Origin: Bolinopsis microptera
Taxonomy: Eukaryota; Ctenophora; Tentaculata; Lobata; Bolinopsidae
NCBI RefSeq assembly: GCF_026151205.1
Contig: NC_087073.1
Coordinates: 15,023,837-15,087,836, forward strand
Direction of reading: 5' to 3'
DNA: 64,000 bases
The notes beneath the pieces were generated by a model, which was not told where the DNA came from, did no database searches, and worked only from the letters and a program-made list of their open reading frames with translations. This document shows, piece after piece, positions 7,580 to 54,800 of this stretch (within the stretch, counting starts at the first letter, position 1; the number at the start of each line of letters is the position of its first letter). The translations under genes were made by a program, and so were the position numbers.

Positions 7580-10500
7580 ATGAACGTCCAGAATTTAGTG
7601 AATAAGAAAAAGAAGGCCTTTATCGGGATGACGGCGCCCCCTGGCTATGTGCCAGGATTAGGTCGAGGTGCCACAGGTTTCACTACGCGGTCTGATATCG
7701 GTCCAGCACGTGATGCTAGTGATATTTCTGATGAGAGACACAAGAACTTCAACAAGGGAAAGTCTGGAGAAAGGCAGGAAGAAGAAGAAGAGGATCTTAA
7801 TGAGTCTAATTTTGATGAGTTTACAGGTTTGTAGCTCATACCATTTGTTAGCCGATTTAATTTTTCGGGTGTTTTCTCTTGACGTATACAAACCTTAACA
7901 AAACCAGTTGCAGTTCTGTAAGATTTAAAAGCTCTTACCAAAGTGGAACTTGATAATCTTTGTTCTATCAGTTAATCATAAAGTCAGCTTCAAATTTACA
8001 ACACTCTTTACAGGCTTGCTTCTTTAGTCAGAGGTAATAAAACTATTATCTCCTCAACCAACAATAACAGTTTATTACCTATTAATAAAGGATATTACAG
8101 GATACGGGGGTAGTTTATTTGGAGGTGGAGCGTACGATAAGGAGGACGAGGAGGCGGATATAGTCTACGAGAGTATAGACAAGCGCATGGACGAGCGGCG
8201 CAAGATCAAGCGTGAGGAGCGTCTCTTAGAGGAGATCAAGAGATACCGGATGGAAAAGCCCAAGATTCAGCAGCAGTTTGAGGATATCAAGAGAGAGTTG
8301 GGTACGATGAGCTCAGATGACTGGTCTGCTATTCCTGACGTCAGCAATATGACACGTACTAAGAAAAACAAGGTAGGATTTAGTGAGTTCCTAAATTGTC
8401 AATGTTTTCAAGCAGTACTTATATTTCCCAAAGCATCTGTCTAAGACACCATACTTGTTTAATTATTTCAGTTCGGATACCATGACTCTAATTTTATCTC
8501 AGAACACAAGAGCAGAAAGGTTTACCCCTGTACCAGATAGTATGATAGAGAGAATGGCATCACAGCAAGGCCACAACACATACGCTTCTAGTGGCCTCCA
8601 ATCAGCTTTACCTGGCGCACAAAGTACGCTCGGTATGAAGACTCCCGCTCCAGGCGAACTTGATTTACTACAAATCGGAGTTGCCAAGAACTCTATGTTG
8701 GGAGTGAAACTTGATCAGGTTTGGTTTGGCCCATTTTAACATGTTCCGTAACATCATACTCGCAGTATCATTGTCATTATTGTTACTTGTTAGAGAAAAA
8801 TAGCAACCATCACTTATGAATTTATGAGTTATCATTATTAAATACCTCCAAACACAGGCTTCAGATAGTGTAACGGGGCAGACAGTTGTAGATCCTAGAG
8901 GTTATCTTACAGATCTGAACTCCATCACACCTAGAAATTTGGGGGATGTTGGTGACATCAAGAAAGCAAGGTTAGTACTTAGTATATTGTATTTAGCAAG
9001 TATGACATTTTACATTTAACTCATCAATTTATATCATGACTTTTTGCTCTGATAATACAACCATTTTAAAACTCGCTTCATTAAAATGTGTTTAATTTCA
9101 GATTGTTGTTACAGTCCGTGACAAACACAAACCCTAAACATGCTCCTGGCTGGATTGCAGCTGCCAGATTGGAGGAAGTAACAGGAAAACTTCAGCAAGC
9201 CAGAAATATCATCGTCAAAGCATGCGAAGTTTGTCCAAATAACGAAGATGTATGGATTGAGGCAGCACGACTTCAACCGTCAGAAATGGCTAAATCAATC
9301 ATAGCCAAAGCGGTAAGTATTCTGTCATATAGTACAGACAGATCCGTCTGAAAAAATCGATCTGCCGACACACAAAGCTTACAAAGGATTTTTGACGTTT
9401 TTGAGTCCTAATAGATGTCCTTTATGGCTGACCAACTTTTCCAAACTTTTCCACGTGTCTTAAGGCCACTTTTTGCCACTTTACCACTTTTTACCACCTT
9501 TCTTGTTTGTCGAATATCTTTAGTTGTGAACATCGTAAAAGGTTGCGGATCAATCGAGTGTGTTTATATTACTATAAAGAAAAACTTTTGTTCTAGCAAT
9601 TTTTACGTCAGATTATCAGTTAATTGGATAATTATCAATTAGCTAATTAGCAAAATTCTAAAAAAAATTTATTGGCTCAAAATGATCGGAATAGCTTAAA
9701 ACACGGAGAAAAGTAGTTTTTAGAAAAACTTTGAAAATTTTTCACTTACATTTTTTTTCGAGACTTGGAAAAATTTCGAAAATTTAAAATATTTTTTTCC
9801 GCCAAAAGAGATCAAATCGCATGAAACGCGGAGAAAAATGCTTTTCAAAAAAACTTAGTGAATTTTTCGTTTCAAGAATACTTAAATCACCAATATTTGT
9901 AGTTGGAGTTCAGTAAATCGCGGCAGATTTTAGTAATCAGGAATTACTAAGTGGAAAGGTCTGAAACTGAAAAACGTTAACCATACGATATATAAGAGTT
10001 TCATAACTAATTACAATACAGCCTTATCAATTTTCACAGAAACTGCACCAATGGCTCAGTCAAGATCGAAAGACGAAACGATAGCCTGCTGTACTATCAT
10101 TTTATTGATTTCAATGATGAATCAGTGGGGTTAAGATAATCACATTTGTAATAAATAAAACCTCTCTGTACCGTCAATTGTGCTAATCTAAACCGGCCTA
10201 CCTGGATTACCAGACCTCTTCTTTTCTTCAACAATCAAACCAAGTTGTTCATATAGCATTTGGTGGGCGATGTAAGTACTTATCGAGCTGTATTCAATCA
10301 CAATACGACACAATACGTGTATATTATATGGCTCTTGATGAGGTTTATGAAACGCTTAAACGGTCAATACCGTGAGAAACCCGGTATAGAGACGTTTTAA
10401 CAGTTTATCACGAAAACTTATACTTGGCCTCATGGCTCATTTAACAGTTCGAGAAGGCAAGAACAGACCAGGGAAAACAAAGGAACAGCCGGGGGTCCAG

Positions 10501-11886
10501 AAAGCAAGTGTAAATTCACCTACAACATCAACTGTGACTTGTTTTGTATTGTACTGCATACCGCTTCATTTGCTATGCTGTTATAAAATCACCCCCATAT
10601 GTCAGGGGTCGGCTAAAATTAAAATCAAGCAAGGGTAACATACGGCAAGGGTAAAATACGGCAAGGATAAGATTTAGATCCGAGCGTCGAGAGAAGGGGT
10701 AGTAAAGAACCGGTAATAATTCATTCAGTAAAATGTTCCACGAGAGTCAGGATATTTTGAAATTGCTAATAGTGACAGATCCTGATCAGGAGGATTGTTA
10801 ATGTTATTGAGGATGTTGATTTGAAAATCTGGACGTTGTGAAGTAAAAATACAGATTCTTCCCGCAGGATATTCGGGGGCCCATGATGATCAGCTCGGGA
10901 TTAATGTGGGACAGATCGAAGAGCATTGAAAGAGCGAGTTGACATTTTTTACGCTTTCTGGTCTTTTCTTGCCTTCTCTTGAGCTGTCAAAGAGTCATGA
11001 GGCCAAGTAGACGTTTTCGTAATAAACTGTAAAAACCTCTCCATACCGGGCCTCTCACGGAGAAACGAGAAGTGTACGGTATAGAACGTTTCATATACCT
11101 CATTAAGGGCCATAATAAAATATACACGTATTGCATTGTGTCGTATTGTGATTGAATACAGCTCGATATAATGTACTTACATCGCCCACCAAATGCGATA
11201 TGAACAACTTGGCTTGATTGTTGAGGAAAAGAAGAGGTCTGGTAATCCAGGTAGGCCGGTTTAGATTAGCACAATTGACGTACAGAGAGGTTTTATTTAT
11301 TACAAATGTGATTATCTTAACCCACTGATTCATCATTGAAATCAATAAAATGATAGTACAGCAGGCTATCGTTTCGTCTTTCGATCTTGACTGTGCCATT
11401 GGTGCAGTTTCTGTGAAAATTGATAAGGCTGTATTGTAATTACTTTATGAAACTCTTATATCGTATGGTTTAACGTTTTCAGTTTCAGACCTTTCCACTT
11501 AGTAATTCCTGATTATTAAAATCTGCCGCGATTTACTGACTCCAACTACATTAATATGGTGATTTAAGTATTCTTGATAGGAAAAATTCACTAAGTTTTT
11601 TTTGGAAAAGCATTTTTCTCCGCGTTTCATGCGATTTGATCACTTTTTGGCGGAAAAAAAATTTTTAAAATTTTTTCAAACCAACTCAAAAAAATTTTAA
11701 TAAAATTTTCAAAACCCAAAAAAACACTTTTCCCCGGGTTTAAGCTTTTCCGCCAAGCCCAATTTTTTTTTAAATTTTTGCAAATTTTCAAAACTTTAAA
11801 ATTACCCCTTTAACAAAAACCGAAAAGCCCCCCAAAAAGGGCCCCAAATTAACACACCCCGGCCCCCCAAACCCCCTTTTCCCCTG

Positions 11887-11924
<38 letters not shown>

Positions 11925-14900
11925 TCCTTAGCCGCTTGTCTCATAAACCAAAAGCGGACTTTTGGGGACGGGGCGGCCCCATTGGACGGCAAACCCATAC
12001 GGCAAAGGCGGCAAGCCGGGGGGCCCAAGGCGCAAATCCCCAAAACAAAAAAAAAAATTTTTGTTATAAAAAGTTTTTGTCCGCGGTCCCAAAACAAAAC
12101 CCCTTAAAAAGGGGGGCCCCCCGCCCCCAAAAGCCCAAAACGCAAAAAAAAAATAACAAATGCGTTCCTCTCATCCTACTCTTCCTCCATCCTCCCCTGG
12201 CGGTCTTCCTGATCGTTCCTCAGTCCTCTTCCTCCTCCCTCCTCAGTCCTCCTCCTACTCCTCCTCCTCGTCCTCAGTCTCTCATATTTCCTACAACAGT
12301 CCTACTCCTCCCCAGTCCACCTCCTCCTCTGAGTCCTCCATCTGTCTGGGTCCTCGCTCTTCCTCGTTGCATCCTCCTCCTCTTCGCTCCTCGGTCCTCA
12401 GTCCTCCGCCTCCTGGGTCCTCCTCCTCGATCCTTCTTATCAGGTCCTCCTCCTCCCCAGTCCTCTTCGCCAGTCCCCCTCCTTCTCCTCCTCCTATTGC
12501 AGGCCTCCTCTTCTCCTCCTTCATTCTTCTCCTCAGTCCTCCTTCTCATTTCTCCTAAGTTCTCCTGCTGGCTCTCCTCCTGAGTCCTCCTCCTCCTCCC
12601 TCTCAGTCATCTCCTTCAGTCATTCCTCCTCAGCCCTCCTCCCAGCCATCCTCCTCAGCCATCCTCCTCAGTACTCCTCAGTCCTCCTCCTCTTAGTCAT
12701 CGTCAGTCCTCCTCCTCAGTCCTCCTCAGTCCTCCTCAGTCCTCCTCCTCCTCCTAGGTCCTCCTCCTCCTCGTCCTCCTGGGTCTTCCTGATCCTCCCC
12801 AGTCCTCTTCCTCCTCCCCTCCTCAGTCCTCCTCCTACTCTTCCTCCTCGTCCTCAGTCCTCCTCATCAGTCCTCAACAGTTCTCCTCCTCCCCAGTCCT
12901 CCTCCTGATCCTCCTCCTGGGGCATTTTCCTGGGTCCTCCTCCTGGGTCCTCCTCCTGGGTCCTCCTCCTGAGTCCTCCTCCTCCTGGGTACTCCTTCTC
13001 CTCCTCAGTCTTTCTTCTCCTCCTCAGTCCTCTTCCTCCTCTTCCTCCTCCTCCTCCCTCTCAGTCATCCTCCTCAGCCATCCTCCTCCTCAGTCATCCT
13101 CCTCAGTTCTCCTCCTCCTCCTCCTAGGTCATCCTTCTGGGTCCTCCTCCTCCTCCTCCTCCTGGGTCTTCCTGATTCTTCTCCTCCCGGAGGACGGACA
13201 TAGGCGGACATAGGCGGACATAGACGGACATAGGCGGACATTAATGGACACCTAAATTGCTAAATAAAATGTTCAATTTTTGCTGTTATAGGGGGATCAT
13301 GTTTTTTGTCCGTTCGGTACCCTATATTTTCAAAACGGACAAAAAATAGAGCGGACAAAAACGGACAAAAATGGACAAAAACGGACAAAAATGGAAATAA
13401 CATTTAGATGCTTCCTCCTCCTACTCTTCCTCCTCCTCCCCCTGGGTCTTCCTGATCTTCCTCAGTCCTCTTCCTCCTCCCCTCCTCAGTCCTCCTCCTA
13501 CTCCTCCTCCTCGTCCTCAGTTCTCCTCATCTTTCCTCAACAGTCCTCCTCCTCCCCAGTCCTCCTCCTCCTCCTGAGTCCTCCTCCTGGGTCCTCCTCC
13601 TGAGTCCTCCTCCTCCTCCCTCTCAGTCATCCTCCTCAGTCATCCTCCTCAGCCATCCTCCCCAGCCATCCTCCTCAGCCATCCTCCTCAGTACTCCTCA
13701 GTCCTCCTCCTTCTCAGTCATCGTCAGTCCTCCTCCTTCTCCTCCTCCTATTCAGGCCTCCTCCTCCTCCTCCTCAGTTCTCCTCAGTCCTCCTTCTCAT
13801 TTCTCCTAAGTCCTCCTCCTGAGTCCTCCTCCTGAGTCCTCCTCCTCCTCCCTCTCAGTCATCCTCCTCAGCCATCCTCCTCAGCCATCCTTCTCAGCCA
13901 TCCTCCTCAGTACTCTTCAGTACTCTTCAGTACTCTTCAGTCCTCAAAATGTTTGTCCGCTAATGTCCACCAATGTCCGCTAATGTCCACCAATGTCCAT
14001 CCAAGTCCGCCAATGTCCGTCCAAGTCCGCCAATGTCCGTCCGAGTCCGCCAATGTCCGTCCGAGTCCGCCAATTTCCGTCCGAGTCCGCCAATGTCCGT
14101 CCGTGTCCGCCAATGTCCCAAAAAACACGTCCGTTGTCTCATAGAATCAAAAAAGGACAGGACATAGGCGGACATAGACGGACATGACACCCCCCCTTCA
14201 CAACTAAAGATATTCGACAAACAAGAAAGGTGGTAAAAAGTGGTAAAGTGGCAAAAAGTGGCCTTAAGACACGTGGAAAAGTTTGGAAAAGTTGGTCAGC
14301 CATAAAGGACATCTATTAGGACTCAAAAACGTCAAAAATCCTTTGTAAGCTTTGTGTGTCGGCAGATCGATTTTTTCAGACGGATCTGTCTGTACTAATA
14401 ATAGAAACATGTTTATTGTTATTTGTTTACCTTATTACATTGTTAGAATAGGTTATTATTGTGCAAGAATTTGTTTTGTAAACATGTCTTATTAGAGGAA
14501 TTCTTATCGTGTGTAAAAATGTAAAGGAGTCAATTTACAGGTCAGGAATCTGCCACAAAGTGTGAAGATTTGGGACAAGGCAGTACAGTTGGAAGATGAC
14601 ACCATGGCAAAGAGGCGGGTGCTACGTAAAGCGCTAGAGAACATTCCTAATTCTGTTAAATTGTGGAAAGATGCTGTTGAACTTGAAGAACCAGGTCTAC
14701 CGTCTTTTAGTTCGCATTTTGCCTGGTTTTGAAAATGGTCGAAACATTCTGAACATCTGCTACAACAACAAATACATAACAATAATAGTATCCTGTTATT
14801 TTGATAATATTATTTTATTCAGGTGATGCCCGGATACTGCTAGGAAGAGCGGTGGAATGCTGTCCTACTTCTGTTGAACTGTGGTGTGCTCTTGCTAAAC

Positions 14901-18508: not shown

Positions 18509-21401
18509 ATGTCCAGGAACGGTCCTGTACTGCTGGTCCTGATGGGTAGCTTCAACCCCCCACACATGGCCCACCTCCGGACGTTGGAGATGGCTAAGGA
18601 TTTCCTTGTTCAACAATCACAACGCGTCATTGGGGGTTAGTGGTCTCTGCAATCTCCTTTTAAATCTCTGGTCAATATCCGGTCACTCTATTTTGTTGTT
18701 GATCGTTTGTTCATTGCTATGCAGGCAACCTGCGTTATAAAAATTGTGGTCACATGGACAATGAGGATTTCCTATTTACATGGCGTGCAAATCTCTCTCC
18801 TCCCAGGTGTGATGTCTCCAGTGCACAACGACTACAAGAAGTACAAGAAGACTCTGATAGACTACCAGGACCGGAGAGCCATGGTGGAGTTAGCAACACA
18901 GAACACCTGGATAAAGTGCAGTGTGTGGGAGGGCAAACAGAACTCCTGGACTCCTACCCGACAGGTATGACGTCATATCAATCTGAATCATTGTCTGCGC
19001 TGTTAGACAACGGATTACATTAGGGATCTCGGGGATTTAAATAAGTAAATTTAAATAACTTACTTGGGAAATGTGAGCTCAATTTCACATGGTATATTTC
19101 ATTTCTTCCCTCTTCTTATGGAAGAATCCATCCTTTCAGACGTTGGAAGCGCTACAAGAGCAAGCTAGAGTTGAGCACAACGAGCCTAACCTAGTGGCTA
19201 AGCTAGTTTGTGGAGCTGACTTGCTGGAGAGCTTTAGTGTACCTGGTTAGATCTTTTTAGTAAACTTTCTTTAATTTTCCTACCTTCTCTGTGTCACCCA
19301 TTATTGGATGAAATATATTATTACTGAAAGATTTAATCTGTTTGGATCAAAGATCTACCAATATTGCAATTGTTTGGGGAAATTGGTAGATCACCGACCG
19401 GCTATAAGCCGGTTATAAGCCGGCTATAAACCGGCTTATAGCCGGCTACAATTTTTATAGCCGGCTATAAGCCGGCTTATAGCCGGTTAGTAGCCGCTTA
19501 CATTTGTTGTTGAGCGACGGCTATTAGCCGGTTATAAGCCGGCTATTAGCCGTTTAGGTATCGGCTATAAGAAATTCAGTGAAAACGGCTATTAGCCGTT
19601 TAGGTATCGAAAGTGGTTATAAGCCGGCTTATAGCCGGCTACAATTTTTATAGCCGGCTATAAGCCGGCTTATAGCCGGTTAGTAGCCGCTTACATTTGT
19701 TGTTGAGCGACGGCTATTAGCCGGTTATAAGCCGGCTATTAGCCGTTTAGGTATCGGCTATAAGAAATTCAGTGAAAACGGCTATTAGCCGTTTAGGTAT
19801 CGAAAGTGGTTATAAGCCGGCTATAAGCCGGTTATAAGATATTAACTCAACTTCATCGTACTGAACGATAGTCAGGAGCCGGCTATAAGAAATTCAGCGA
19901 AAACGGCTATTAGCCGGTTATAAGCCGGCTATTAGCCGTTTAGGTATCGAAAGTGGTTATAAGCCGGCTATAAGATATTAACTTAACTTCATCGTACTGA
20001 ACTGAGTTAATATCTTATAACCAGCTTATAGCCGGCTTATAGCCGGCTTATAACCACTTTCGATACCTAAACGGCTAATAGCCGGCTATAACCGGCTAAT
20101 AGCCGTTTTCACTGAATTTCTTATAGCCGGCTCCTGACTATCGTTCAGTACGATGTAGTTGAGTTAATATCTTATAACCGGCTTATAACCACTTTTAATA
20201 CTAAAACGGCTAATAGCAGGCTTATAACCGGCTAATAGCCGTCGCTCAACAAAAAATGTAAGCGGCTACTAACCGGCTATAAGCCGGCTTATAGCCGGCT
20301 ATAAAAATTGTAGCCGGCTATAAGCCGGCTTATAGCCGGTTAGTAGCCGGCTTATAGCCGGTCGGTGATCTACCAACTGGCCATTGTTTGATATTAAGAG
20401 ATAACATCTATCGTGAACCCAAACGTCTGATTTCTAGATTTGTGGAAGTGGGAGGATATTGATAAGATACTGGGTAACCACGGAGTTTTACTATGTCGGA
20501 GGCAGGGCAGCAATCCAGATCAGTTCATCTTCAAGTGAGTTTTAACTTTTTTAAATGCTTTCTTTTATAAAGTTTCGTGGGGCTGGACAGAATGCTTTAA
20601 AACATCACAGTACCATTAATACCATGGGCCTAGCTGTGCTTACTATCAGTGACTGAGTGACCTGTTAGAGGTGTTCAATGTTAGTCTTAGTGAATTAAGT
20701 CATTGCTCCCCCCTCACAAACCCCTCCCCCCTCACAACCCCCTCCCCCCCCCCCCCCCCCTCACACCCCCCTCCCCCCCCCCCCCCCCCCCCCTCACAAC
20801 CCCCTCCCCCCCCCCTCCTCCTCTACAACCCCTCCTCCCAGACACGATCTGTGCTACAAACACCGCAGCAACATCAAGATAATCTACGAGCCTGTTAACA
20901 ATGACGTCAGCTCCACCGTACTGAGGACTTTGGCTGCCCGGAACTGCAGTCTTAGATTCCTGACTACAGGTGCTGAAGCAGAGAAAAACGACTATCAGCA
21001 CTACTGATACTTGTTTCTCTCTTTCTCTGTTATGGCTCATTATTGTGATCTATTCGTGTGATTCATGTGACTTGTAATACTTTGTTCGTATAGTTTAAGT
21101 GTGGAAGTGGATATTTTAATAGTGATATCTTACTACTACACTTAAACTTCTGTTAATGGTCCATTCTATTAATATCACTCTTTACAAATACTGAATTTGG
21201 TTCAAGTTTACTTGATCTGATAACTCATACAGTCAGTGCTTAATTTTTGGTGTTTTTTTGAGCTCAGACATTGTAGCTAAATACTTAAAATGTCGCTCGA
21301 AATCTTGTACACAATATTATTGTGAACTACACATGCTTTATCTTGCAGACTCCGTGTGTGACTACATATCAGAACGAAAGTTATACTGTCCTGACCAATA
21401 A
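18509..21401 (+). CDS. NMNAT: Nicotinamide/nicotinate mononucleotide adenylyltransferase
   Basis: Makes NAD(+) from NMN and ATP. Exons: 18509-18635, 18807-18964, 19140-19245, 20438-20534, 20842-20969, 21349-21401 (TAA); phases agree and give 222 aa. The nucleotide-binding motif is GSFNPPHMAHL (exon 1), followed by GGVMSPVHNDYKKY (exon 2), KLVCGADLLESFSVP (exon 3), DLWKWEDI (exon 4), KHRSNIKIIYE and the SSTVLR motif (exon 5), and DYISERKLY at the end (exon 6). It is shorter than nuclear NMNAT1 and lacks a basic NLS insert before the CGADLLE motif. Reading through the donor at 20970 instead gives an alternative tail (GAEAEKNDYQHY) with a stop at 21005-21007; the spliced form matches the family better. 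A 1-kb fold-back element fills part of intron 3. Confidence 0.95.
19383..20376. mobile_element. 994-bp fold-back element made of AGCCGGC(T)TATA repeats
   Basis: The outer ends TTGGTAGATCACCGACCGGC and its exact inverse (ending 20376) bound an interior made almost only of GGCTATAAGCC-type units. A block of about 180 bp is repeated directly (about 19440-19620 and 19625-19805) and then appears inverted toward the right end. It lies in NMNAT intron 3. No frame is coding. Confidence 0.85.
20742..20818. repeat. C-homopolymer-rich tract before NMNAT exon 5
   Basis: Runs of C separated by CTCACA/CTCCC form the extended pyrimidine tract before the acceptor at 20841. Exact run lengths may be unreliable. 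Confidence 0.8.
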
Positions 21402-30800: not shown

Positions 30801-33800
30801 AATATGTTTGGGCAAAACAAGATCGAAGCATGGCCAATATTAATTAAACTCCGTAGGAGCTCCTCTATTATTATTGATACGATTAAACTTATTGGTCCTT
30901 TGAGGAATCGTCAATAATGGGAAATAATGGAGTAGAGATACACTTTAGTTTGTGAATTAAATTTGGACCAGAACTTTGGAACTAACACATTTAGCAGCAT
31001 ATTTAAGCAATAACCTCTCTAAAACCTCAACAGATTTCAGTCTCTACAAAATGTTTCGTGTATTAACAGTATTAATAGTAAGCGCTCTGGTGTTGTCAGT
31101 GCTCTCTTTGGAGCAACACGTGCCAGGAGGTGATCAGGGATGGTGCTGGGACCCTTGGGACAAAGTGTGGCACAAACAGGGTGAGAGTTTATTGTTTTGA
31201 AACTTGATGTGTAACGAAATATGTGCCGTTTGAAATGGCGCTGTTTCTTAAATCGGAATATTTAGATCATGTTTGGTTTTTTTCTATCAATAGAAAAAAA
31301 AATAGCTGTCGTGGTATAGATAATAAATATAACAGGTGAACAATGGTACGGAAAATGTAGGGTGTGCACATGTGATGGGGAGGGTGGTACTATGTGTAGT
31401 GATATTCCCTGTAGAACACCACAGATACCTGCTTCCTGCCCGGATACAGCCATACTGGTGAGTTGACCGCTGATCAGGACTTTAAGCAAAAATTAGGTAA
31501 ATACTAAACAATTTGATCACCATCCCAAATACTGGCATCTTTATAAGTTTATAATATCTGTTCTCAAATCTATTAAATGCTCTTTTTAGGTTAACGATGA
31601 CTGCAATTGTCCAAAGTATGTGTGTCCTTGAGAAGGAGGAACAAGACCGGATGACTTGAAGGGCAGTTTCTATAACCTCTCCATTTGCTTGGTTCAAATA
31701 TAGCCCTTCATTTCATTTTTATTCAACTAAAGAAGAGTTTTATTTGTAAATTCACAGTGAAACCCATACAAATCACCGTCTCTCCTCTTCTTTAATACAT
31801 TGTAGGCGGACGTCGTGAAGGTCGTGAAACCACGTGACACTGCCCACTGGTATCCTAGCAGGTAGCTGAGGAAGAGCCTCCTCCGGTTAGCCGGTATTAC
31901 GGTTAACAGGAAATATTGTCGAGCATGTGTTTTAATTCGTAGTCAATAATTCTCAAATTCATATTTCTGTACACCACGCCTACAGGCTGCATGTTGCGAT
32001 GTGAAAATAACATCAGATGTAAGAGCCCGGAAATTCATTAGAACTTAACTCATCTCCTGTAATAATATAATAATGAACCGTGTAGGAGCCCCTGCATGTT
32101 GTACACACACACACGGGCAGGTAGTCTCAGTAGAGTGTGGGAAATTTAGAACCACTTTAGAATACTCTGTCTGGCCAGAATTTGGAGTGAGCCCTTTTAC
32201 ATAAAGCCGCTGACAGTAATGCACTTTATCAATTAAAGTAGAAAGCCATTGGAATTTTCAATGAATATAAAGCTTTGTGTTTTGTGGTTATAAAAATTAT
32301 AAAAACCCTGCATACGAGTTCGGTATTCCCAACCCCGCGAGAAATCCAGACCCAGACCTAAACACTATACTCAGCCTCAAACAGGTTGTATCGAGATTCG
32401 ATAAGGACCTCGCACCCCCACCAAAAGCCATACCACCTGTTGAGGAGACTATCAAACAACTTAAGTGCTCCATGGAAGGCCTAAAACACGATCTGAGGAA
32501 GATACACATCCCCAGGAACTACCTTAAAGAAGATCTCGAGAGCCTAACAGAGGCGAAAACGCGGGAAAATGTACGGATTATCCTGACCGACAAAACCAAC
32601 AATATTGCTATCATGGAAAGAGAACTAGTGGAGCAAAAGCTAGCTGACCACCTGCGAGAACCTGCTTACAAACTATTAGAAGAAGATCCCACTAATAAGT
32701 ACGAAACAGCAGCAAACAACCTGTTTACCGACATATGCATAGATCTTGGAATAGATGTCACGAAACCCCCCATCAAACACGTTCTAAGCAACTACTCGTC
32801 GGCCCCAGAACTCTACCCAATGGCTAAGGATCACAAGCCCAGCTTTCCCAACACCAAAGTTCGAGTAGTACAACCTATCAACAACAGTGCTATAGAAAAA
32901 CTCGACATGGTAGTGAGCAAAGTACTGATACAAATTAATCAGCTCCTCCCAAACCGAGTCAAAAGTACAAAAGATTTTCTCACTAAGCTCCGCAACACTT
33001 ATCCTGACAACATACCGTAACCAGTAGTGTCAGTTTCCAAGCATCCCTTGATGTGGAGAACATGTACCCTACTCTACCCACTGACGAGAGAGCTTTACAA
33101 GTCATACTATCGTACATTGAAGATTACAAAGAAAATATTAACCTGTACGGATTTTCGCCCTCACATATTGTCTCCATGCTCGAATTTGTCCTACACCACA
33201 CTTACATCAAAGCAGGCGACAAATACTACCTACAAAAACAGGGTATCGGCACTGGGTCCCATAGTTCAGGCGCATACGCAGAAATCATCGTCGACTACAC
33301 CTACAATATAGCAGCAGAAAAGAGTACCCACAAGCCGGAGTGCCTTTCCACGTACGTTGACGACGCCTGGTTACTCTGGAAGTCAAGCGCCGAAGACTTC
33401 GAGGAATTCAAAGCCAATCTGAACTCTGTTTGGGCCTATGTAAACTTCACCAGCGAACTTCAAGAAGATAGAAAGCTCATTTTCCTTGATCTCACCATTG
33501 AGCTAAAAGAGAACAATGAAATATCCTTCACTCACTACCAAAAACCTACGGCTTCTGGAAGATATTTGCATTACGACTCACACTGTAGTCTAGTCACCAA
33601 AACAAACATCATCAGGTCGGAGACTAGGCGGATAGTTCTCAACTGCAAATACAAGGATGACAGCTGGGCATACCTCGAAAAACTGAAAACTCACCTGATC
33701 GTAAACTCCGGATATCCCAAAGAAGTCGTGACAAAACACATGTTACAAGCTCTAGAGAGACTAGAAGTACTAACAAGCTCGACCCCACGAGAACCCCGGC

Positions 33801-36800
33801 CAGAACCCGACCTTATCCTGAAGATACCGTACATTAACGAGAGCTTTACCAGGAGAGTCAACTCATCGATCAAGCAACTGGGAATAAACGCCAGAGTAGT
33901 GACACAGGCGGGGAAAGCTGTCAGGAGCATCATCAGCACACCATCTAAAGACGAGATATGCGAGTGCGAACTCTGCAAGGCAGATCTCAACTGTACCACC
34001 CGACACTACGTGTACAAAGCAAAATGTAAGAAATGCGGAGATCTGTACATAGGAGCTTCAAGACGACCTATTAGAGGTCGAATCTACGAACACGAGTCTA
34101 GCTTCCGACTCAACAACAGCAGGACCACACTAGGATACCACGCTGCTGAACACCGCAGAGCAGACGACCCACACTACACTCCCATATCGGGAAAAAGAGA
34201 CTTAGCAAAATTCTTCGAAAACTACGAATTTAGCATATCAGAACAATGTAAGGATACCTTAGATACCTTTATAAGAGAAGGCTTAGCAATAGAACACACT
34301 AAACCGAAAATCAATAACATGTGTGGAAACGGTTTTACAGACTAATTTCTAGTACACTTTTACTACGCTGATCTGAGGGTTGTAAACTTTCTCTGTTGTG
34401 ATTTTTTCTTATTGGTAACCCGATTTTTCTCGCATGGATGTGTACACCCCTTTTCTATAAATTTTGCTGAAATTTTCTTCCTAATGGTAACCCTGATCTT
34501 TGTCGCATGTATGTTTACTTTCCTAACCCAATTACCACACTCTCTGATTCAGAGATCAAACCTCCCCTTTTCAGTGTAACCTTGATAAAGTCCAATGCGT
34601 GACGAAAATTTGGTTTTACAGTTTACTTAGTTCCTTGTTTCACTTTGTTCGCAGTTTCATTTCGGGTGACGTGAAGTCTAAAATGAAAGCTAAATTCGTC
34701 TCAAACTCACGCTCAGCCTTAAGATCTATTTGATAAAAATTGTTCGCAGAATGTTAGCCAAAATCTTGCGTCATACCTAACATGCCCATCCAAATTTTAA
34801 AATGTAGTAAAATGGAGCGACTAAATGTGTATGGTATTAAACCAATATCAAATATCAACGTTATCGCTTCCTTCCACAAATACGCTAGTAATCTTGTTGA
34901 GGGTTAATATTATGTTCCTATCTGTAAGAAATAATTGAAATTTATGATTTAATACTTTAGAACTTAGCAACAGTAATATTTATCGTTGAGTCTGCCCACA
35001 ATTCAATGTTTTCGCTTCCTTCCACCACTGCACTAGTCATCTTCAGGACAGTATATTCTTATCTGTAATTACTCAGATGCAAAATAAATGAAATTTAGAC
35101 TTAAGAGCCCTCTAGAACTAAGCAACGTGGACAGATTCCTCTAAAACCTACCATTTCTAACGTACCCCTTACAATTCGTTCGCCAATATTAAATCATGAT
35201 CTTGTTCTTTAACATTTTAAGTCTGCTGATCGTGCAATCTTTTGAACCACAGGGCCTTTCCTAAAGATGACAGCTATAATGTTTGACACGATAAATAACG
35301 ATTATATCGAATATTATCCAGACTGGAGTGGTCTGACAACTGCCGTGTCTGCTTGTGGGTGGATAAAAGACTTAGGGTCATTCCAGTTCCCTACTATATT
35401 CAATTACCATAGTAGTGAGCTGGTAATGATGGCAGATGGACAATACACTCGCATCTTCAGTGTAACTCGACACTTGAACAGCGGGTTCCCTGTGCCGAAA
35501 GGCACTTGGTTTCTAGCTTGTATGACGTGGAGTATGTCATCAACAGATCAGCGATACTACGTAAATGGGAAAGTTATCGGATCGCAGCAAACAGCATCGG
35601 GCAGATCACTAAAGACCGGAGGGAAACTAAGACTGGGAAATTGGGGTGGAGGTAACAACAATTTTGGGGGACAAATGATGTACCTTAACTTTTACTCCAA
35701 AGAATTTTCCTCCAGTGAATTAGCTAGAATGGTGCAGAAAGGAATGTGTGCTCATATCGTGGAGGCTGACGAGCATGAGGCATCTAGAGTGATAAAATGG
35801 GAGGACCTGGTGCAGCTTGAAAGGAGTGGAGCAGCCACGAACATGTATGTAGGAGAATGTGTTGATCTTCTTAACGAGCAGTCCGAGCGGAGGCAGAATG
35901 AAACTGCTGAAGAATTGAAGGACTCCCGACAGCAACTCGAGAGCGTTCAGTCAGAAAAAGAAGAGATAGAGGAGGAACTCTCGACTAAAGTCAACGAGCA
36001 CGCTTGTAAAGGTCAACACTAGGCTTAATTCTACTGTCCGTGAGCTAGAGGAGATGTCGACCAGCCAGAACCGAACGTGGGACTGGAATATCTTCCTCGC
36101 GGGAGAATTCCTGAACCGCACCTTCACGACTGAAGACGCCCAACTTCTTCGCTCCAGCTGGGAAGATGCAGCAGGTACAAGGATAAATTCCTAGTAAAAA
36201 TGGCGTAAACAGCAGCTAATCAAATTTTTATCAATACGGTATAAGTCATCGAATTATGGTTATGACATCAGCATTTTGTTTAACTAATAAATCAGTATTT
36301 TAGCAACCTTTTTTCGCTCTTATGAGTGGGTCGATCATATAACTCTCTCTCTTCGTTCCCAACTATCAAATTATAAATCAGTATTTTATTCACATTAACA
36401 CACCAACTATTTCAGAGAAACTCGTCGGATTAACTATCACAGATAAACTGATCAAAGCATTGGACTACTTCGACTCTGATGAAGACAGGCCCTGGCTAAT
36501 GTTGTACTCCGAGAACTACTTCAACAAAGTTTTCACACGGAAAATGGCAAAGGGATTAGCAAACGTCTGGGATGGCATCAGTGGTTATTACTTTATTAGA
36601 AATCTTATTCAAATTCTTTCTACTTCACACTCACACAGCTGGAATAAAGCTTTAAAACATTTCTCAGTAGAAAGCATCTAGACATTTGACTAGGTATTCT
36701 AACACAAATCAGGTTACGATAGTTTTTATATTTTCTAGTTTGTACATTTCGTTATTTCAGGGAAGTTGGTGGGTGTACCGATGACAGAGGAGGTGATTGA

Positions 36801-45800: not shown

Positions 45801-48800
45801 AAGTAACAAAGGATGTCACTTAATATATTAAGGAAATTAAATATTATAGAGTAAATCTAAAACTGGGAAAACAGACAAGATAATGTGGTAGGCGTTAATA
45901 AAGATAAAATTAAATTAGTACAATGTTAAAGTTATAATACAATATGTTACCGGTCGCGGTGTAAAGTGGAATAATGTTATGTAGTCGGTGTTTCAAATTG
46001 AAACTTCTCCAAGTAACAATTAAAGTAACAGCGTATTTAATAATTAATTAACAATTAAGGGGGCCGGGGGGGGGGGTCTTCATCAAAATTCTCTCGAAAT
46101 TGATTTTATAGTTGTTTCTGATAGAGGGGAGTGATATCTATCAGCTGCTTTTGGTCCCATGGAAAAATATTGTTCCTAGCCAAAATTATCGCCAGTCAAA
46201 GGTCAGCGCTTATGTGTAATTGTATTGCGCGAGCGATTTTCAATCGCGCGCCCTGAAAATCGAGTCTAAAAATCTATCTTCTCCTACATTTTTTGAGCAA
46301 TCACCCTAAAACTTTCAGGATATGTTCTATGGATCATTTAGAAGATATCTGTCGAGCCGAATTTTGAGATAGGCCTTAGAAGATTTTTTATTCAATTTTG
46401 AAAATCTTGGACCTCATTTTTTTACGATTTTTCCAGGTCCAAGATTTTCAAAATTGAATAAAAAATCTTCTAAGGCCTATCTCAAAATTCGGCTCGACAG
46501 ATATCTTCTAAATGATCCCTAGAACATATCCTGAAAGGGGGGGAATGCAACGTCAATTAATATCAATTAATGTCAATTAATGTCAATTAATGTCAATTAA
46601 TGTCAATGTCAGTTTTGCAAAATTTTGGAATACTGACATTAATTGACACGATATTTTTCGACCAGAGATTATGTAGTTCTACCATATTTTTAGCACTTTA
46701 GAACGTTTATATCATCAATTTATTCACTACTATCACATATGGAAATGTGAAATGTGAAAAAATTCAGATCATTAAACAATAAAACTAAAATAATACGGTT
46801 TCCCGAAATTTAATTTTCTTAAGGGGGCCGGGGGGGGGTCTTCATCAAAATTCTCTCGAAATCGACTTTATAGTTGTTTCTGATAGAGGGGAGTGATATC
46901 TTTCAGCTGCTTTTGGTCCCATGGAAAAATATTGTTCCTAGCCGAAATTATCGCTGGTCAAAGGTCAGCGCTTATGTGTAATTGTATTGCGCGAGCGATT
47001 TTCAATTGCGCGTTCTGAAAATCGAGTCTAAAAATCTATCTTCTCCTACATTTTTTGAGCAATCACCCTCAAACTTTCAGGATATGTTCTTAGGATCAGT
47101 AAGAAGAGAACTCTAGAGCCAGAATTTTGAGATAGGCCTTTAAAGATTTTTAATTCGATTTTGAAATTCTTGGACCTTAATTTTTAGAGGTCCAAGAATT
47201 TCAAAATCGGATTAAAAATCTTTAAAGGCCTATCTCAAAATTCTGGCTCTAGAGTTCTCTTCTTACTGATCCAAAGAACATATCCTGAAAGTTTGAGGGT
47301 GATTGCTCAAAAAATGTAGGAGAAGATAGATTTTTAGACTCGATTTTCAGAACGCGCGATTGAAAATCGCTCGCGCAGTACAATTACATATAAGCGCTGA
47401 CCTTTGACCAGCGATAATTTCGGCTAGGAACAATATTTTTCCATGGGACCAAAAGCAGCTGATAGATATCACTCCCTTCTATCAGAAACAACTATAAAGT
47501 CGATTTCGAGAGAATTTTGATGAAGACCCCCCCCCGGCCCCCTTAAATGGGCGTGGCCATCCAAGGGCGTGGTTCTCAACATCATCAGAACTTAAAACCC
47601 ACATTAAACGAAATGCCTTCATGACATTTATATTTGAATAACGAATCTTAAACAGCTAACATTACTCCTTCATACTAAAAAAGCCGATTCTAGATATTTT
47701 ACCTGTATAAGAAACCAATAAAATATGGGCGTGGCCGGTGGGGATCGAAGATGGAAGAGTTCGAAGCTGAAATCTTTTTTGGTGGTCTTTGAACCTAAGG
47801 ATCAACAGATAAGAACATACTCATAATTATTCAAGGACATTTTGTTTTTTTGAACCGGTCTAACTTACATAGACGTGAATATCTTGAATATTTATCGAAT
47901 AATGATAATCTCAAATTTCATGACATATTTATGTCAATTAATGTCAATTAATGTCAATTAATGTCAATTAATGTCAATTAATGTCAATTAATGTCAATTA
48001 ATGTCAATTAATGTCAATTAATGTCAATCAATGTCAATGTCAGTTTGGGGTTTTTATGGAATACGGACATTAATTGACGTTGCATTCCCCCCCCTGAAAG
48101 TTTCAGGGTGATTGCTCAAAAAATGTAGGAGAAGATAGATTTTTAGACTCGATTTTCAGGGCGCGCGATTGAAAATCGCTCGCGCAATACAATTACACAT
48201 GAGCGCTGACCTTTGACTGGCGATAATTTTGGCTAGGAACAATATTTTTCCATGGGACCAAAAGCAGCTGATAGATATCACTCCCCTCTATCAGAAACAA
48301 CTATAAAATCAATTTCGAGAGAATTTTGATGAAGACCCCCCCCCCCCCCCGGCCCCCTTAAAGTAACAGGTTTATTTAATAATTAAAACTCACACAGGAG
48401 GCTGATCTGCTGACCCCCATCCGGCAGTGCACGAATACTTTCTTGTTCTGCCTCTTAGCGTCTTTGATGAAGTTGTAGGTGTCGTCCCAATACTGCTGTA
48501 AGTAACTAGCTTCCTCGTCCTTTATCCTGGGAGTTATAAGTTTGATGAAAAGGAAAATACTAAAGATATTATAATAAGTAAAAGACAATTTAACCTGCAA
48601 GAAGATGCCGGCAAGTGGATATGGTCAAGAGTCTGATTCTAGGAATCACACAAGAAATTATGAGTGGCACACACCTGATAGTTTTATAAACAAATTCATG
48701 ACTGAAGAAGTTAGCAATCTCCATGGTAACGTTCAGAACATGGGTGACTCCGTACTGCTTGAGCTGTGTCAAGTGACTGGCATTCCATTCGTTACCCAGG

Positions 48801-51800
48801 TACAGGTAGTCAAATATCTTGCTCGGACTCTCCGTCGATTGGCCGAACACTTTCACAATCTGAGGGCACCCGATACTGAATATCTTTTTAGTGAACGGTG
48901 TAAAGTGGATTAAGTTATCTTGACAGGATCTGTGTTCTATGTAACTGAATTAGGTTGTGTCCTAATAAGGTAACATTAGGTTGTGTCCTAATAAGGTATC
49001 ATTATTCGATATAACATAAGAAATTTATGAATAATATTATGTGGGACTAATATTGTTCTCTTTGATTCTTGAATAATATCAAAGGATCCTCTGAAACCAA
49101 TATTTTTACACATTGCAATATTTTTAATATTATGGAATTAAAAATCAACTTAAATATAACGCCAAAAAACTTAGGCCTGTAAAGATGAAATACCAATGTA
49201 TTATATATTATTACTATTTGGGATTCCATTATTGGATTTATCTTAAAGGTTTTCCATTGCATTGGGGCACAAAAGTTATGTTTTTAAAAATATTCATAGG
49301 TATCGTTTTTAGTTGTGTCATTTCATTTCCAATGTTACACTTTGTAGGAACTGATATTAACCGAGTTTCTGATTCAGGATGTTACTGAAGATAGTAATGA
49401 AACTGTTTTAACACCTCAGTACTGTGTTTTACTACAGCTCAACCTGCTCAGTCTGACTATTTGGGAATTTAAACTCTTGATATTATTACTATAATATACT
49501 ATTATATTATATAATGATTAAAATAAACCTGCTCATCTATAAAGCGTTTGTAGGGAGTGAGATTAACATTAAAGTCGGACTCCAGCTGTTTACGGATTTC
49601 CAGGCAGCTCGCATTATCAAGATCTATCGTCATTATTATCTCTCTCATTCGGAACAGGATCTTCTCCATAATCCTCTTTATCTTATCACTGAAACAGCCA
49701 GGTAATTTACAATATAGGAGTTTTTCTTAACGGTTCAGAGAAATTATTCCGCTGACTGCTGAAACATAATCCCCAAATTCCCCACAATGTATACCCTGGC
49801 CTTGTATAATATTACAATGAGAATTCTCGTGACTACTTAGTTAAAATAAAATAAATATGTTATAAATTCAGTCATATGTAAATTTTACTTCCGTGTGTAC
49901 AGTACAGTATACTGTGTAGTGTGTACAAATATACATACACATTACACTGTGTGCAGACAGTATCTTAGCTTACACGTGGGGATGTATACTGTACATTGTA
50001 CATTGTACATTACATACACTGTATAGTGTAGAGTCACGTAGGTCTTCCTATGATGCACATTAGCACCATGTTCACTAATCACTATCTCCACTTCCACTAC
50101 CACCATTAGCAAACCACGCATGTACACTACACACACCACGCACACCGGCATACAGTGTATAAGGCATGAACAATGAACATTGCGGGAAACACACACTTGG
50201 CAAGGCGAGTGTAAACAGTGGTTTCTGCTTGCAAATACCTTTTCAACGTGGTCGTGTAAACAGTGAACATTGAAATAGTGTAATTTATACCGTTCCAAGA
50301 TATGTATTCCCACTAAACTTATTTATATATTAAATGTCCCTGAGGGTTTGGTATGGGCTCCAAAGGCTACAAAAGGACCCTTCAATTTGGTCATGTGGTC
50401 AGTACCTCTAAAACGTGAGATTAGTGATTATTTCAACATACACCGTCCTCATGATATCCCTTATTTTACCCCTCATACATGTTACACAACAACAAGGGTA
50501 TAACTTTAACAAAATACAAAGGACCCTAATTTTAAAGATACCTCTAATTTAAATGTACGTTTAACCATTTAAACACGCGTGTTTAATAGACACACATATT
50601 TATGACACGTTAAATCTTACATAAGACACCTGCCTCCTCTCTCCCTCTTCTCACCGCCCATATTATTTGTTACCCACTTTTTTGTTTTGTTTTGTTTTGA
50701 AACCCCACGGTGGAGGTTGGCGTGTGCCGCAATTTATTAATCAATGGTTATTACATAAATGAAATTATAGAAGTCACACTAAAATATAATAATGTAAAAT
50801 AAAATATATTAAAATAAATGCCCTACTAAAAGTACTATATAACTAACGGTCTGCAAAACTGGTTGAAGTCGCAATTTGTGAACATGCTAATTACTATTTA
50901 ATAATAATAGATAAAAAGTTTTGCGCGGCAGATGTAAATTCGGCATTGCATAATGAGATAATGGCAGTGAAATTAAAATGATATGTTGTTGATAAAAGAT
51001 CATAGTCATTTGTCGCGAGTGATCTTTCTTTACGCGTTGTCGCTTACTAACTCGGTGCTGTAGTCTATTTGCGAGCGCCCTTCTCTTTGAGACTTTCTTA
51101 GCCCAGGTATACTATAAAGTAAGAAATTTGGCCAATTTTCATCGTCTCCTGAGCTTTGCAGCTTGAGGAGTTCGCGCTTAGCTGAATTTTTAAAGATTTC
51201 AATCGAAAAGGTAGAACTTGGAATAGTTATATCCTTACTTTGTTTTGTAATAGAGAGCATGGGTCCTTTGAAGAAAAGAATATTTCTAAATGTTGGGCCG
51301 TTGTAAGTTGTGAACCAAGAAAGGTTATGTTCGTATGTGGAATTATAGGTGGGAATATCGTGAGGGAAAAGTTCTTTGATGGATTTAGGGAGAAGGCTTG
51401 GCATGTTCCTTACTTTGTGTAGTAGAATAAGAGCGTTTTTTACAATGACGCTATGGACTGTTAGGATATTATGCAATCTAAACGCACTTTTTGTGTGCTC
51501 CGGGGGATTGCCGTCTTTATATCTATAATTTACATATCCTGACATAACAGCTCTAATTCCCTGCTTTTGCTTGGTGAACAGAGATTCAATGTGACATTTT
51601 GAGGCAAATCCCCACACTAAAGAGCAGAAATTTAGATGGGATTGGATAAGGCTTTGGAAAATGTTTAGGCGGGCTTTGATAGGTAGAAGGTGCTTTAGCT
51701 TATACATAACTCCGAGGTAGCGACCCATCTTTATTCTAACTGCCGTAATGTGTTTTTGCCAAGTGAGCTTTTCGTCTAGGATCACTCCTAAAAATCTTGC

Positions 51801-54800
51801 TTCAGTCTTACGTTCGATTACAGTGTTGTCAATGGACAAATTAAAGCCGCTGAAGTCGATTCTTTTTCTAGTGAAAATCATGTAACACGTCTTTTTTACA
51901 TTTAAAGATAGCCCATTAGCACCTACCCAATCTACAAGACGTGAAATTAGCTGATTAGCTTTTAATTGTATTTCTTCTAGGGTGGTTCCACTAATTAATA
52001 TGTTTGCGTCGTCGGCATAAAGGATGAACTTTGCAAAATCACTAATTCCAGGTAGGTCGTTTATATAAATTACAAATAAGAGAGGTCCTAGAATGCTCCC
52101 CTGAGGTACGCCGTAAACTATGGGCATGCTAGAAGAGCAAGTTCCGTTTAAAGTTACGTATTGAGATCGATTACAAAGGTAAGATCTAAACCATTCGTGC
52201 GCGACTCCCCTGATCCCATAATGGTCAAGCTTCTTAAGCAAGGTCTCATGATCAAGCACTCAGAGTAGGAAGTAGTAGGAATAAGTAAAGTAGATATGGG
52301 GAAAAGATATTCGATTGAGATGATGAAATAAAGGAAGCTGTTTCATACGGCTTCAATACTGACTCTTTAAATCATGTTTAGCGACTTGGTACTCAATACT
52401 GGCTCTTTAAAATCATGTTTAGTGACTTGGCTCTCAATACTTACTCTTTAAAATCATGTTTAGCGACTTGGCTCTCGATGAGTGAGTTGTCCTCCCAGTC
52501 GTCCTCAGTTTCCAGATAATCAGGTACTTTAGCGGTGTAACATCCTGCCCAGGTGTGGTGGTTCCTGCTGCCCGGGAAGAAGTTGTGTCTCCGGGCGTTC
52601 TCTATGTCAGGGTTCAGGTAGGAGTAGGCTACCCTGCGAACATTACACACGTGTCATCATGGTATTATAGAATATAGTAGTAAGAGTATTAATATAGTAG
52701 GACTATAATAAACAGATAGTTAATAGTCCTACAGCAGTACAGTACTACAGTATATTATAGTAGTAGGTATAGTTTAGTGGTTCAGAGCACTGAATTGGGT
52801 GCTCTGAGTGGGGGGACTTTTTGAATAGTGGTTCTTTCAATTGAAGTTCAATCGCAATTTGATAGTGTTGCCGATTAAAAAGGAAAGGAGACAATTTTAA
52901 GAAGCTTTATTTGTCCAAATACTTACCATAAAGCTTGCAAGTTGACAGGCTTGAAAATATACTGGCCATGATTCTGAGCGGATCTGATCTTGATGCCACC
53001 ATCACCATCCATCTCTATAGACATTCCTTTAGTAACTGGCAGTGCCATGGCGACTGTTATATCTCCTTGACATCCAGAAGGTGACTGAAAGTATGCAATA
53101 ATATCAATATTATTGAATAACATAGGACGCATCTAGATTCTAGATACAAGTACATTCAATGTACAATTTGTTTGCTTTCACTAAAAAAATAATGTTTGAT
53201 AGAATATAAATTATAAAATGCTAGTCACGGAACACACCTCTCGATGGTTGGGACAAGCAGTAACGTTCTCCGGCAGATTATTGCCGATGTTGATCCCTAA
53301 GATGGCGTGCTCACGTACGTCCTCCCCGTAACCCGGGTCAAGATGAGCACCTACCATGATCACCATGTACCTCTTCTTGCTCTCGGACGACTTCACTGCT
53401 CCAGGTACCACCTGAAGAGGTGGTGGTTAAAGGTGTGTACCAGTTGAATCTTGTCTGTGTACATTGTACAAGTTGAGCAAAATCTAACCAGTTAAATATT
53501 CATTTTATTCTGATATATCTTCTACTGATCATATATTGACTTTCAGGCCTACTGGTTCACATGCCAGTTACCATTATTAATTAACAGTTTCAAACCAGAT
53601 AGCTGATATATGAGCTACATAACTGTTTTTGTTTACAGATCTAAACTTTGTGTAAACAAACTAAATAATCCTAACATTCTTGGCATGACCGTTCTGAACA
53701 CTCCTGACAATTATGTCATTTCACCAGCCATGCTGAACTGACTCTAATCAGCGATAGCCGTTACGGAGTGCATTAAATGTACCGATCATCAGAGTATATT
53801 TAGCCCAAATAAGTATTGATAGCTAGCGATTAGTATGAAGTCTATAAATAATCTCTGCTTAGTTGGTGCGAAATGCAAATATCCTTGTATAGTATTTACC
53901 GCTATACACCGTCGTGAACTATTTTAATTGCGCTGATCGCATCTCGGAAGACAATTGAACAGAAATTATGTAGGTAGAGCGAAAACAGAATGTTATTGAA
54001 CATGACTAAAATGACTATAAATGGAAATAAAAGTTGTCTCAAAAAATGATTAAAGCTATAGAAGCTGTATGATGAAAACAGAAAAGTGGGATCAGACTAA
54101 GATCCAACAGAAGTGAAAAACATCAGAAAAAAGCAGAAAACTTACCAATTGAATGGAATGTTCAAGGTAAGCTGGTCTCTGAGCGGAGGGATGTGGCATG
54201 ACTTCATCCAGAATACGTTGAGTAATACACTTGATCAGACCTGCAGTTGAAAATAGTTTAGTTGCAGATTCATCGAGAAGCTTTTACAAACTTTCTGCGG
54301 CCCCTCAGCAACACACGTCTGGCTACTATACGAAGCACAGCTTTGATCACAGTGAATTGAATCTGATAGAGCTACAGTGCATAAGACTTTGAACTTCGCT
54401 TCTTACATGCGTGGCTCCTGCAGCAATTTAAAGAGATTCTCTACACATTTTAATTGTGATTATTTGTATAATATTTCCTTTAAAGCAGCTGCCTTTTTAA
54501 ACTAAGTTTGATAGATAAGGAATCATGCCTACTCAATGTGAAACTGTTACTTGGGATCAAATGTGATTTTACAAGAGAAATAAGGGGTTAAGACAGAATC
54601 TCATGCCAGAAGCATCTTTCATACAGAAATGGCACGATGTTATCAGTATGTCGGTACTGTCATTGATCTTGACATAAAAATCACTTACGAACAAAAAGCA
54701 CGCTCATTTACTTACTGACATATGGAGGTAAAACTAGAGAAATAGCAATGGTTAGTGAAAAATTAGACTTTTAAAAAGTTTATTATGAAGCAGTCGGAAT

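What the first reader, a model, noticed from the sequence alone, without database searches (positions are those of the whole stretch)
46055..48361. Three-layer nest of elements with readable insertion order and target duplications
Element C (TTAA-flanked hairpin) sits in element B, which duplicated 8 bp (CCTGAAAG) of element A, itself TTAA-flanked and a sister of C. The order A, then B, then C can be read directly. A and C are fold-backs with G-run ends and TTAA sites; B has (TGTCAATTAA)n arrays at both ends. A short direct repeat of about 32 bp also flanks the whole block.
Basis: seen in the sequence. Interest (0 to 1): 0.72.

Follow-up and report, generated by a model that had tools for sequence, protein, structure and literature searches.

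The report
Three jumping elements nested in order
Three short, gene-less jumping DNA elements inserted one inside another in readable order; the nesting is ordinary for transposons, but the long hairpin-shaped elements involved have halves that changed together as the family evolved.

Summary
A (744 bp, near-perfect fold-back, TTAA on both sides) was hit by B (831 bp, inverted ends GGGGGGAATGCAACG, 8-bp duplication CCTGAAAG), and B was hit at a TTAA by C (728 bp), a fold-back of A's family. Both families occur alone elsewhere in the genome. Of 20 solo B copies fetched, 17 have exact 8-bp duplications; none contains C, and 15 show C's target with a single TTAA. Of 25 sister copies of A, 24 show B's target uninterrupted. 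The '32-bp repeat around the block' is an older 35-bp tandem duplication that A split. So this is an ordinary nest of non-autonomous DNA transposons, probably in the ctenophore Bolinopsis microptera (inferred). A/C look Kolobok-like (TTAA target, GG ends; Kolobok-like transposases present), but in the part read no transposase has GGGGGCC ends. B's superfamily is unresolved. One result goes beyond the finding: differences between A/C subfamilies are mirrored in both hairpin arms (22-27 columns against 0-5 one-arm, the four multi-member clusters), whereas changes private to one copy sit in one arm (79 v 9). The propagating lineage is thus re-symmetrised; resident copies mostly are not.

The parts
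46055..46537 (.). Element A, left piece (TTAA + GGGGGCCGGG... + whole left arm, loop and start of right arm)
   Evidence: 46312-46414/46435-46537 99% complementary
48101..48361 (.). Element A, right piece (rest of right arm, ends CCGGCCCCCTTAA)
   Evidence: 48093-48346 pairs with 46066-46319 at 99%
46055..46058 (.). TTAA target duplication of A, left
   Evidence: empty site kept in unit 1 of the 35-bp tandem duplication
48358..48361 (.). TTAA target duplication of A, right
46530..46537 (.). 8-bp target duplication CCTGAAAG of B, left
   Evidence: single copy at this place in sister A/C elements
48093..48100 (.). 8-bp target duplication CCTGAAAG of B, right
46538..46818 (+). Element B, left piece: inverted end, decamer array, short stem-loop, interior
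47547..48092 (+). Element B, right piece (continues after C's second TTAA)
46552..46607 (+). (TGTCAATTAA)n array, left end of B
   Evidence: 3-14 exact units in 19 of 20 solo copies, 0 in L030, whose left end was not fetched
47927..48038 (+). (TGTCAATTAA)n array, right end of B; same orientation as the left array
   Evidence: 7-13 exact units in 20 solo copies
46819..47546 (.). Element C, fold-back with both TTAA copies (46819-46822, 47543-47546)
   Evidence: empty site in 15 of 20 solo B copies
46017..46051 (+). Unit 1 of the older 35-bp tandem duplication, with the unoccupied TTAA that corresponds to A's site; unit 2 is 46052-46058 + 48362-48389

Best explanation
Three successive cut-and-paste insertions by non-autonomous DNA transposons. 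First, a fold-back MITE (A) entered a TTAA in the second unit of a small tandem duplication. Second, an unrelated MITE (B), with short inverted ends and subterminal decamer arrays, entered one arm of A and duplicated 8 bp. Third, a second fold-back of A's family (C, another subfamily) entered a TTAA in B's interior. No open frame of 170 aa lies there (shown); each was moved by a transposase supplied elsewhere (inferred). For A/C this is most likely a Kolobok-type transposase (inferred, about 0.65). For B it is an enzyme making 8-bp duplications; hAT is a candidate mainly because it is abundant. The arms of the A/C family change together between subfamilies but mostly not within single resident copies, so the propagating lineage is now and then made symmetric again (shown as a pattern). 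The likely means is copying one arm onto the other when the hairpin extrudes during replication or repair of the excision gap (inferred).
For: Exact borders and duplications. Solo copies of both families. 20 of 20 fetched A/C copies with differing flanks and TTAA at both ends (chosen by a pattern that contains TTAA, so the TTAA is independent evidence only in L002, L003, L005 and L006, found by similarity, and in the empty sites). 17 of 20 solo B copies with exact 8-bp duplications, plus 4 of 4 long B copies. Empty site of C in 15 of 20 B copies; empty site of B in 24 of 25 sister copies; empty site of A in the tandem unit. Frames of 742-796 aa with THAP and PF20700 domains, in elements whose inverted ends lie at TTAA and continue AGG, AGT or AGA, in the same genome. 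Mirrored arms.
Against: No autonomous partner for either family was found: none of 11 THAP loci (of 43 matches) plus one PF20700 locus that I read has the A/C end, nor any of the 26 fetched piggyBac loci; not every element end lay inside the fetched pieces. The Kolobok-like ends seen read TTAA-AG, not TTAA-GGGGGCC. No tool named those proteins Kolobok: Pfam calls PF20700 Mutator-like, and the label is mine. Divergence does not date the layers: A has 1 and C has 2 private arm changes, and B's core is 4 of 530 from the 20-sequence majority. The order rests on nesting alone. Arms of one copy are nearest relatives in only 15 of 52 cases and sisters in 6 of 26 elements, and of 75 minority variants shared by two or more elements 25 are mostly one-armed, so correction is neither continuous nor complete.
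Confidence: 0.9

Rival explanations
1. One composite element with fixed borders that moves as a unit and only looks nested.
For: None found; one search lists only one match spanning the whole block (query 1-2307), the window itself.
Against: A/C and B families each occur alone in many places with their own duplications.
Confidence: 0.01
2. A and C are mobilised by a piggyBac transposase rather than a Kolobok one; piggyBac also uses TTAA.
For: 26 piggyBac (PF13843) matches in the genome, several with long open frames.
Against: The one piggyBac end that alignment of four copies defines (L057-L060) reads TTAACCC, the opposite base type to TTAAGGGGGCC; no A/C-type end lies in any of the 26 fetched loci, which reach about 1.5 kb beyond each match. 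Other piggyBac families' ends were not established.
Confidence: 0.2
3. B is a hAT-type MITE.
For: 8-bp duplications; hAT dimerisation-domain matches are very many here (150 of 150 scored, 365 candidates).
Against: B starts GGGGG(T/G)(G/A)ATGCAACG, not the C/T-A-R-N-G start recalled for hAT; the recalled hAT site preference (T at 2, A at 7) is met in only 18 of 44 positions.
Confidence: 0.35
4. The mirrored arms arise because each subfamily was founded by one new fold-back event (snap-back synthesis from a single arm), not by repeated arm-to-arm correction.
For: Subfamily majority sequences are mirrored at most diagnostic columns, as a single founding event per subfamily would give.
Against: The loop differs between C-type and A-type subfamilies but the arms stay alignable, and four both-arm private changes occur in copies inside multi-member clusters (L045, L041, L049, L002).
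Confidence: 0.45
5. Assembly artefact.
For: The region is made of repeats.
Against: Exact duplications at all three borders match the rules seen in many independent copies. Raw reads were not available, so this was not tested directly.
Confidence: 0.02

Closest known systems
T2-MITE / Kolobok superfamily (Xenopus; PMC6004289, passages seen)
   Same: TTAA target, purine-purine (RR) start of the element, high-copy non-autonomous copies; THAP-bearing Kolobok-like transposases exist in this genome
   Different: Here the end is GGGGGCC followed by a run of at least 7 G; the element is a nearly perfect 730-bp palindrome; no partner with the same ends was found
piggyBac superfamily
   Same: TTAA target duplication
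   Different: The piggyBac end defined in this genome starts TTAACCC
MITEs carrying tandem arrays, e.g. Xmix/Xstir in Xenopus and others tabulated in PMC9659126 (passages)
   Same: B carries variable-length tandem decamer arrays inside a non-autonomous element
   Different: B has two subterminal arrays in direct orientation, short inverted ends and an 8-bp duplication
Arm-to-arm maintenance of long inverted repeats, e.g. in Caenorhabditis (PMC1803023, abstract and outline) and Y-chromosome palindromes (search listing only)
   Same: Inverted-repeat structure kept while the sequence changes
   Different: Here it is a mobile family of hundreds of ends, and single-copy changes are mostly not mirrored

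Membership tests
MITE (non-autonomous DNA transposon), A/C and B | Short, non-coding, inverted ends, target duplication, many copies | tested here: met
   (no stop-to-stop frame of 170 aa overlaps 46055-48361)
Kolobok, for A/C | TTAA target duplication | tested here: met
   Empty sites with a single TTAA for C (15 of 20 B copies) and A
Kolobok, for A/C | Element starts with two purines (RR; PMC6004289 passage) | tested here: met
   TTAA-GGGGGCC
Kolobok, for A/C | Autonomous partner with THAP + DDE transposase and the same ends | tested here: inconclusive
   Kolobok-like transposases present but their ends read TTAA-AGG, -AGT or -AGA; only 12 loci of 43 THAP and 25 PF20700 matches were read
piggyBac, for A/C | Ends of the CCC type, as in the one piggyBac family of this genome whose end alignment defines (four copies) | tested here: not met
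hAT, for B | 8-bp target duplication | tested here: met
   17 of 20 solo copies, 4 of 4 long copies
hAT, for B | Terminal consensus (C/T)A(A/G)NG (recalled) | tested here: not met
   Ends are GGGGG(T/G)(G/A)ATGCAACG
P element, for B | P-type transposase in the genome | tested here: inconclusive
   PF21787 found nothing here or in the 14 controls, so the search is uninformative

The most novel reading that the evidence does not exclude
The A/C palindromes are re-symmetrised as part of their own life cycle: during excision-gap repair or replication the 360-nt arms snap back and one arm is rewritten from the other, so only freshly copied (propagating) elements are corrected while resident copies decay one arm at a time. 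This would make the near-perfect hairpin a by-product of transposition rather than of chromosomal gene conversion.
Probability: 0.3. Interest if true: 0.55.

Novelty: new member of a known kind. Interest (0 to 1): 0.35.

Why it matters
The nest itself is a clean textbook case with an empty site for every layer. It defines the borders and target rules of two high-copy element families in what is probably a ctenophore; the searches I made listed no paper titled on ctenophore MITEs or Kolobok elements, though I opened none of those listed. The mirrored-arm pattern gives a family with hundreds of natural replicates on which models of how fold-back MITEs become and stay palindromic can be tested directly.

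Tried and rejected
Single composite element: rejected. piggyBac as source of the A/C ends: 26 fetched loci (some overlapping), none with an A/C-type end; the end defined by aligning L057-L060 is TTAACCC. TTAACCC strings also occur in L061-L063, but some lie inside the matched coding stretch, so I do not count them as ends. Autonomous A/C partner: 11 THAP loci (L086-L096, of 43 matches) and one PF20700 locus (L097, of 25 matches) read; none has the A/C end; the outer ends of several of them (L086-L089, L094, L095, L097) were not all established. L089 has THAP but was not scanned for other domains. Autonomous B partner: of 11 B end pairs 1.1-5 kb apart (the window's own left out) among the 100 places listed, four were read in full (L083, L084, L085, L098), and all four are B copies interrupted by other elements: a TCC-array element, an inverted-repeat element, a Copia-like element and a LINE-like element (the last two names are my reading of the frames). 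A widely spaced pair of A/C arms (L099) is a diverged A/C copy interrupted by a foreign stretch with a 317-aa frame that I take for a LINE ORF1. Idea that B's arrays, with a TTAA every 10 bp (22 TTAA in 831 bp), are landing pads for A/C: not supported, since neither array context occurs before GGGGGCC among the 5 matches; one piggyBac (L060) does sit in such an array. COX1 search to name the host: nothing. P-type search uninformative. Dating the layers by divergence: too few differences.

Full report
WHAT IS THERE. The window is G000:C2:15023837-15087836 of a 264.65-Mb eukaryotic assembly with 13 large contigs (and contig lengths in later calls). C is 46819-47546, 728 bp with both TTAA, two 359-nt arms 98% complementary with 10 nt between them. 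B is 46538-48092; without C it is 831 bp, begins GGGGGGAATGCAACGTCAATTAAT, ends with the reverse complement of that, and is flanked by CCTGAAAG at 46530-46537 and 48093-48100. A is the rest of 46055-48361, 744 bp, with arm pieces 99% complementary. Arms of A and C differ from each other at 25-28 of about 363 aligned positions, while the two arms within A and within C differ at 8 each (end-to-end alignment that includes the loop edge). As single-stranded DNA, C folds to -439.3 kcal/mol against -77.6 +/- 4.6 for 20 shuffles.

THE FLANKING REPEAT. The ~32-bp direct repeat around the block is an older tandem duplication, period 35 (46017-46051, and 46052-46058 continued at 48362-48389). A sits at the TTAA of the second unit; the first unit still has the corresponding TTAA unoccupied, so it is a local empty site for A.

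SOLO COPIES AND EMPTY SITES. The A/C end TTAAGGGGGCCGGGGGGG occurs 519 times (265 + 254; reversed control 1), and an internal arm 28-mer 369 times (control 0). I fetched 20 copies with both exact ends 725-758 bp apart, chosen from the 100 places listed: all 20 have different flanks outside the TTAA. They were chosen by a pattern containing TTAA, so the TTAA there is not independent; it is independent in L002, L003, L005 and L006, found by similarity, and at the empty sites. Seven shorter pairs among the listed places (about 466-662 bp) were not analysed. B ends occur 394 times (control 0). I fetched 20 solo B copies, taken from the 40 best-scoring of 594 candidates. Of these, 17 have exact 8-bp duplications and lengths of 801-920 bp; two (L020, L033) have none recognisable beside long G or C runs, and the left end of one (L030) lay outside the fetched piece. 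Fifteen of 20 show C's target as a single TTAA in the expected context; the other five do not match the context string exactly, but are only 801-871 bp long, so none of the 20 contains C. Of 25 A/C copies other than A, 24 show B's target CCTGAAAG uninterrupted in at least one arm; L053 in neither. All three insertions are thus shown with empty sites, and the order A, B, C follows. Divergence adds nothing to the order: A has 1 private arm change, C has 2, and B's interior is 4 of 530 from the majority of 20 aligned sequences (of 22 tried, L030 and L098 were dropped for incomplete coverage).

B IN MORE DETAIL. The two decamer arrays run in the same direction and each is followed by a short stem-loop module, so beneath the short inverted ends B carries direct subterminal repeats (D1). 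Array length varies from copy to copy: 3-14 exact units left, 7-13 right (left not seen in L030). Of 11 other B end pairs 1.1-5 kb apart among the 100 places listed, I read four in full; all four have exact 8-bp duplications and are B copies interrupted by other transposons. No autonomous B was found. Twenty-two target duplications show no strong shared motif.

WHICH ENZYME. For A/C: piggyBac and Kolobok both use TTAA. piggyBac (PF13843) gives 26 matches; the end defined by aligning four copies reads TTAACCC. A THAP search gives 43 matches. Four distinct frames of 742-796 aa (L088 with its copy L093, L090, L091, L092) carry THAP and a partial PF20700 match, and L090, L091, L092, L093 and L096 have inverted ends at TTAA continuing AGG, AGT or AGA. 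Pfam names PF20700 Mutator-like; I call the proteins Kolobok-like because THAP, a DDE-type domain, TTAA and an RR start together match the description in PMC6004289 (passages). I put Kolobok at about 0.65. For B, hAT transposases are abundant (150 of 150 scored), but B's ends do not fit the recalled hAT start.

MIRRORED ARMS. I took 26 A/C elements (A, C, L037-L056, L002, L003, L005, L006; L004 and L007 are the same loci as L038 and L042 and were left out). Arm-to-arm divergence within an element averages 2.07%, between elements 7.4%. The elements form five clusters (8, 8, 5, 4 and 1 members); A and C fall in different ones with different loops. Between the four clusters with more than one member, differences between majority sequences are the same in both arms at 24, 24, 26, 22, 27 and 22 columns, against 5, 3, 2, 2, 3 and 0 in one arm only, plus 1, 0, 1, 1, 0 and 0 other (cluster pairs 1-2, 1-4, 1-5, 2-4, 2-5, 4-5). 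The four comparisons with the single-member cluster (L048) are weaker: 23, 13, 23 and 24 mirrored against 9, 10, 8 and 7 one-armed, where L048's own private changes inflate the one-armed count. If arms changed independently, about 0.7 coincidences would be expected for 26 changes per arm. Yet changes private to one element lie in one arm 79 times and in both 9 times; 5 of those 9 are in L048, alone in its cluster, and L052, basal in its cluster. Of 75 minority variants shared by two or more elements, 50 are mostly two-armed and 25 mostly one-armed. Arms of one copy are nearest neighbours in only 15 of 52 cases and sisters in 6 of 26 elements. Shown: the lineages that propagate are kept or made symmetric; resident copies are mostly not corrected. 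Inferred: correction is tied to propagation (hairpin-templated repair or replication) or happens at the founding of each subfamily; the present data do not separate these.

HOST. No name is given. Thirteen large contigs, 264.65 Mb, and a share in those contigs of at least about 97% (12 printed lengths sum to 241.7 Mb, and C13 has matches beyond 15.2 Mb) agree with Bolinopsis microptera: 265 Mb (PMC11797021, passages), and 13 chromosome-scale scaffolds with 97.23% of bases (PMC10232365, passages). The scaffold counts differ (232 here, 346 in the table of PMC11797021). This is inference; no marker gene was tested (COX1 search empty).

VERDICT. Real, correctly read, and ordinary as a nest: non-autonomous DNA transposons of known kinds. 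My literature searches listed no paper that I could see describing these families, but Repbase-type libraries were not available, so they may be catalogued there. The mirrored-arm pattern is the part worth following.

Noticed in passing
window 9330-14397: A ~5-kb stretch bounded by 201-nt inverted repeats, 100% complementary, holding TCC-rich arrays and GGACATAGG repeats; parts of it match the inserts in B copies L083 (85-86%) and L084 (78-97%).
   Followed up: partly
L060:300-440: A piggyBac copy (end TTAACCC) inserted in a TTAATTGACA decamer array like that of B.
   Followed up: partly
window 19383-20376: A cluster of mutually inverted and tandem repeats built from CCGGCTATAAG-like units.
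   Followed up: no
window 33008-34345 and 51030-52259: A frame with a weak GIY-YIG match just below the cut-off, and a reverse-transcriptase frame (PF00078): probably other transposon remains.
   Followed up: no
L085: B inserted into a 39-bp tandem repeat (GTTGCTACCATTCTAAAACCCCCCAGAGAGGGGTCCCTA) and itself hit by an element with an 803-aa frame that I take for Copia.
   Followed up: no
L088 and L093: Two Kolobok-like copies 99.6% identical over 4.6 kb with an open 796-aa frame in each: a family that moved recently.
   Followed up: partly
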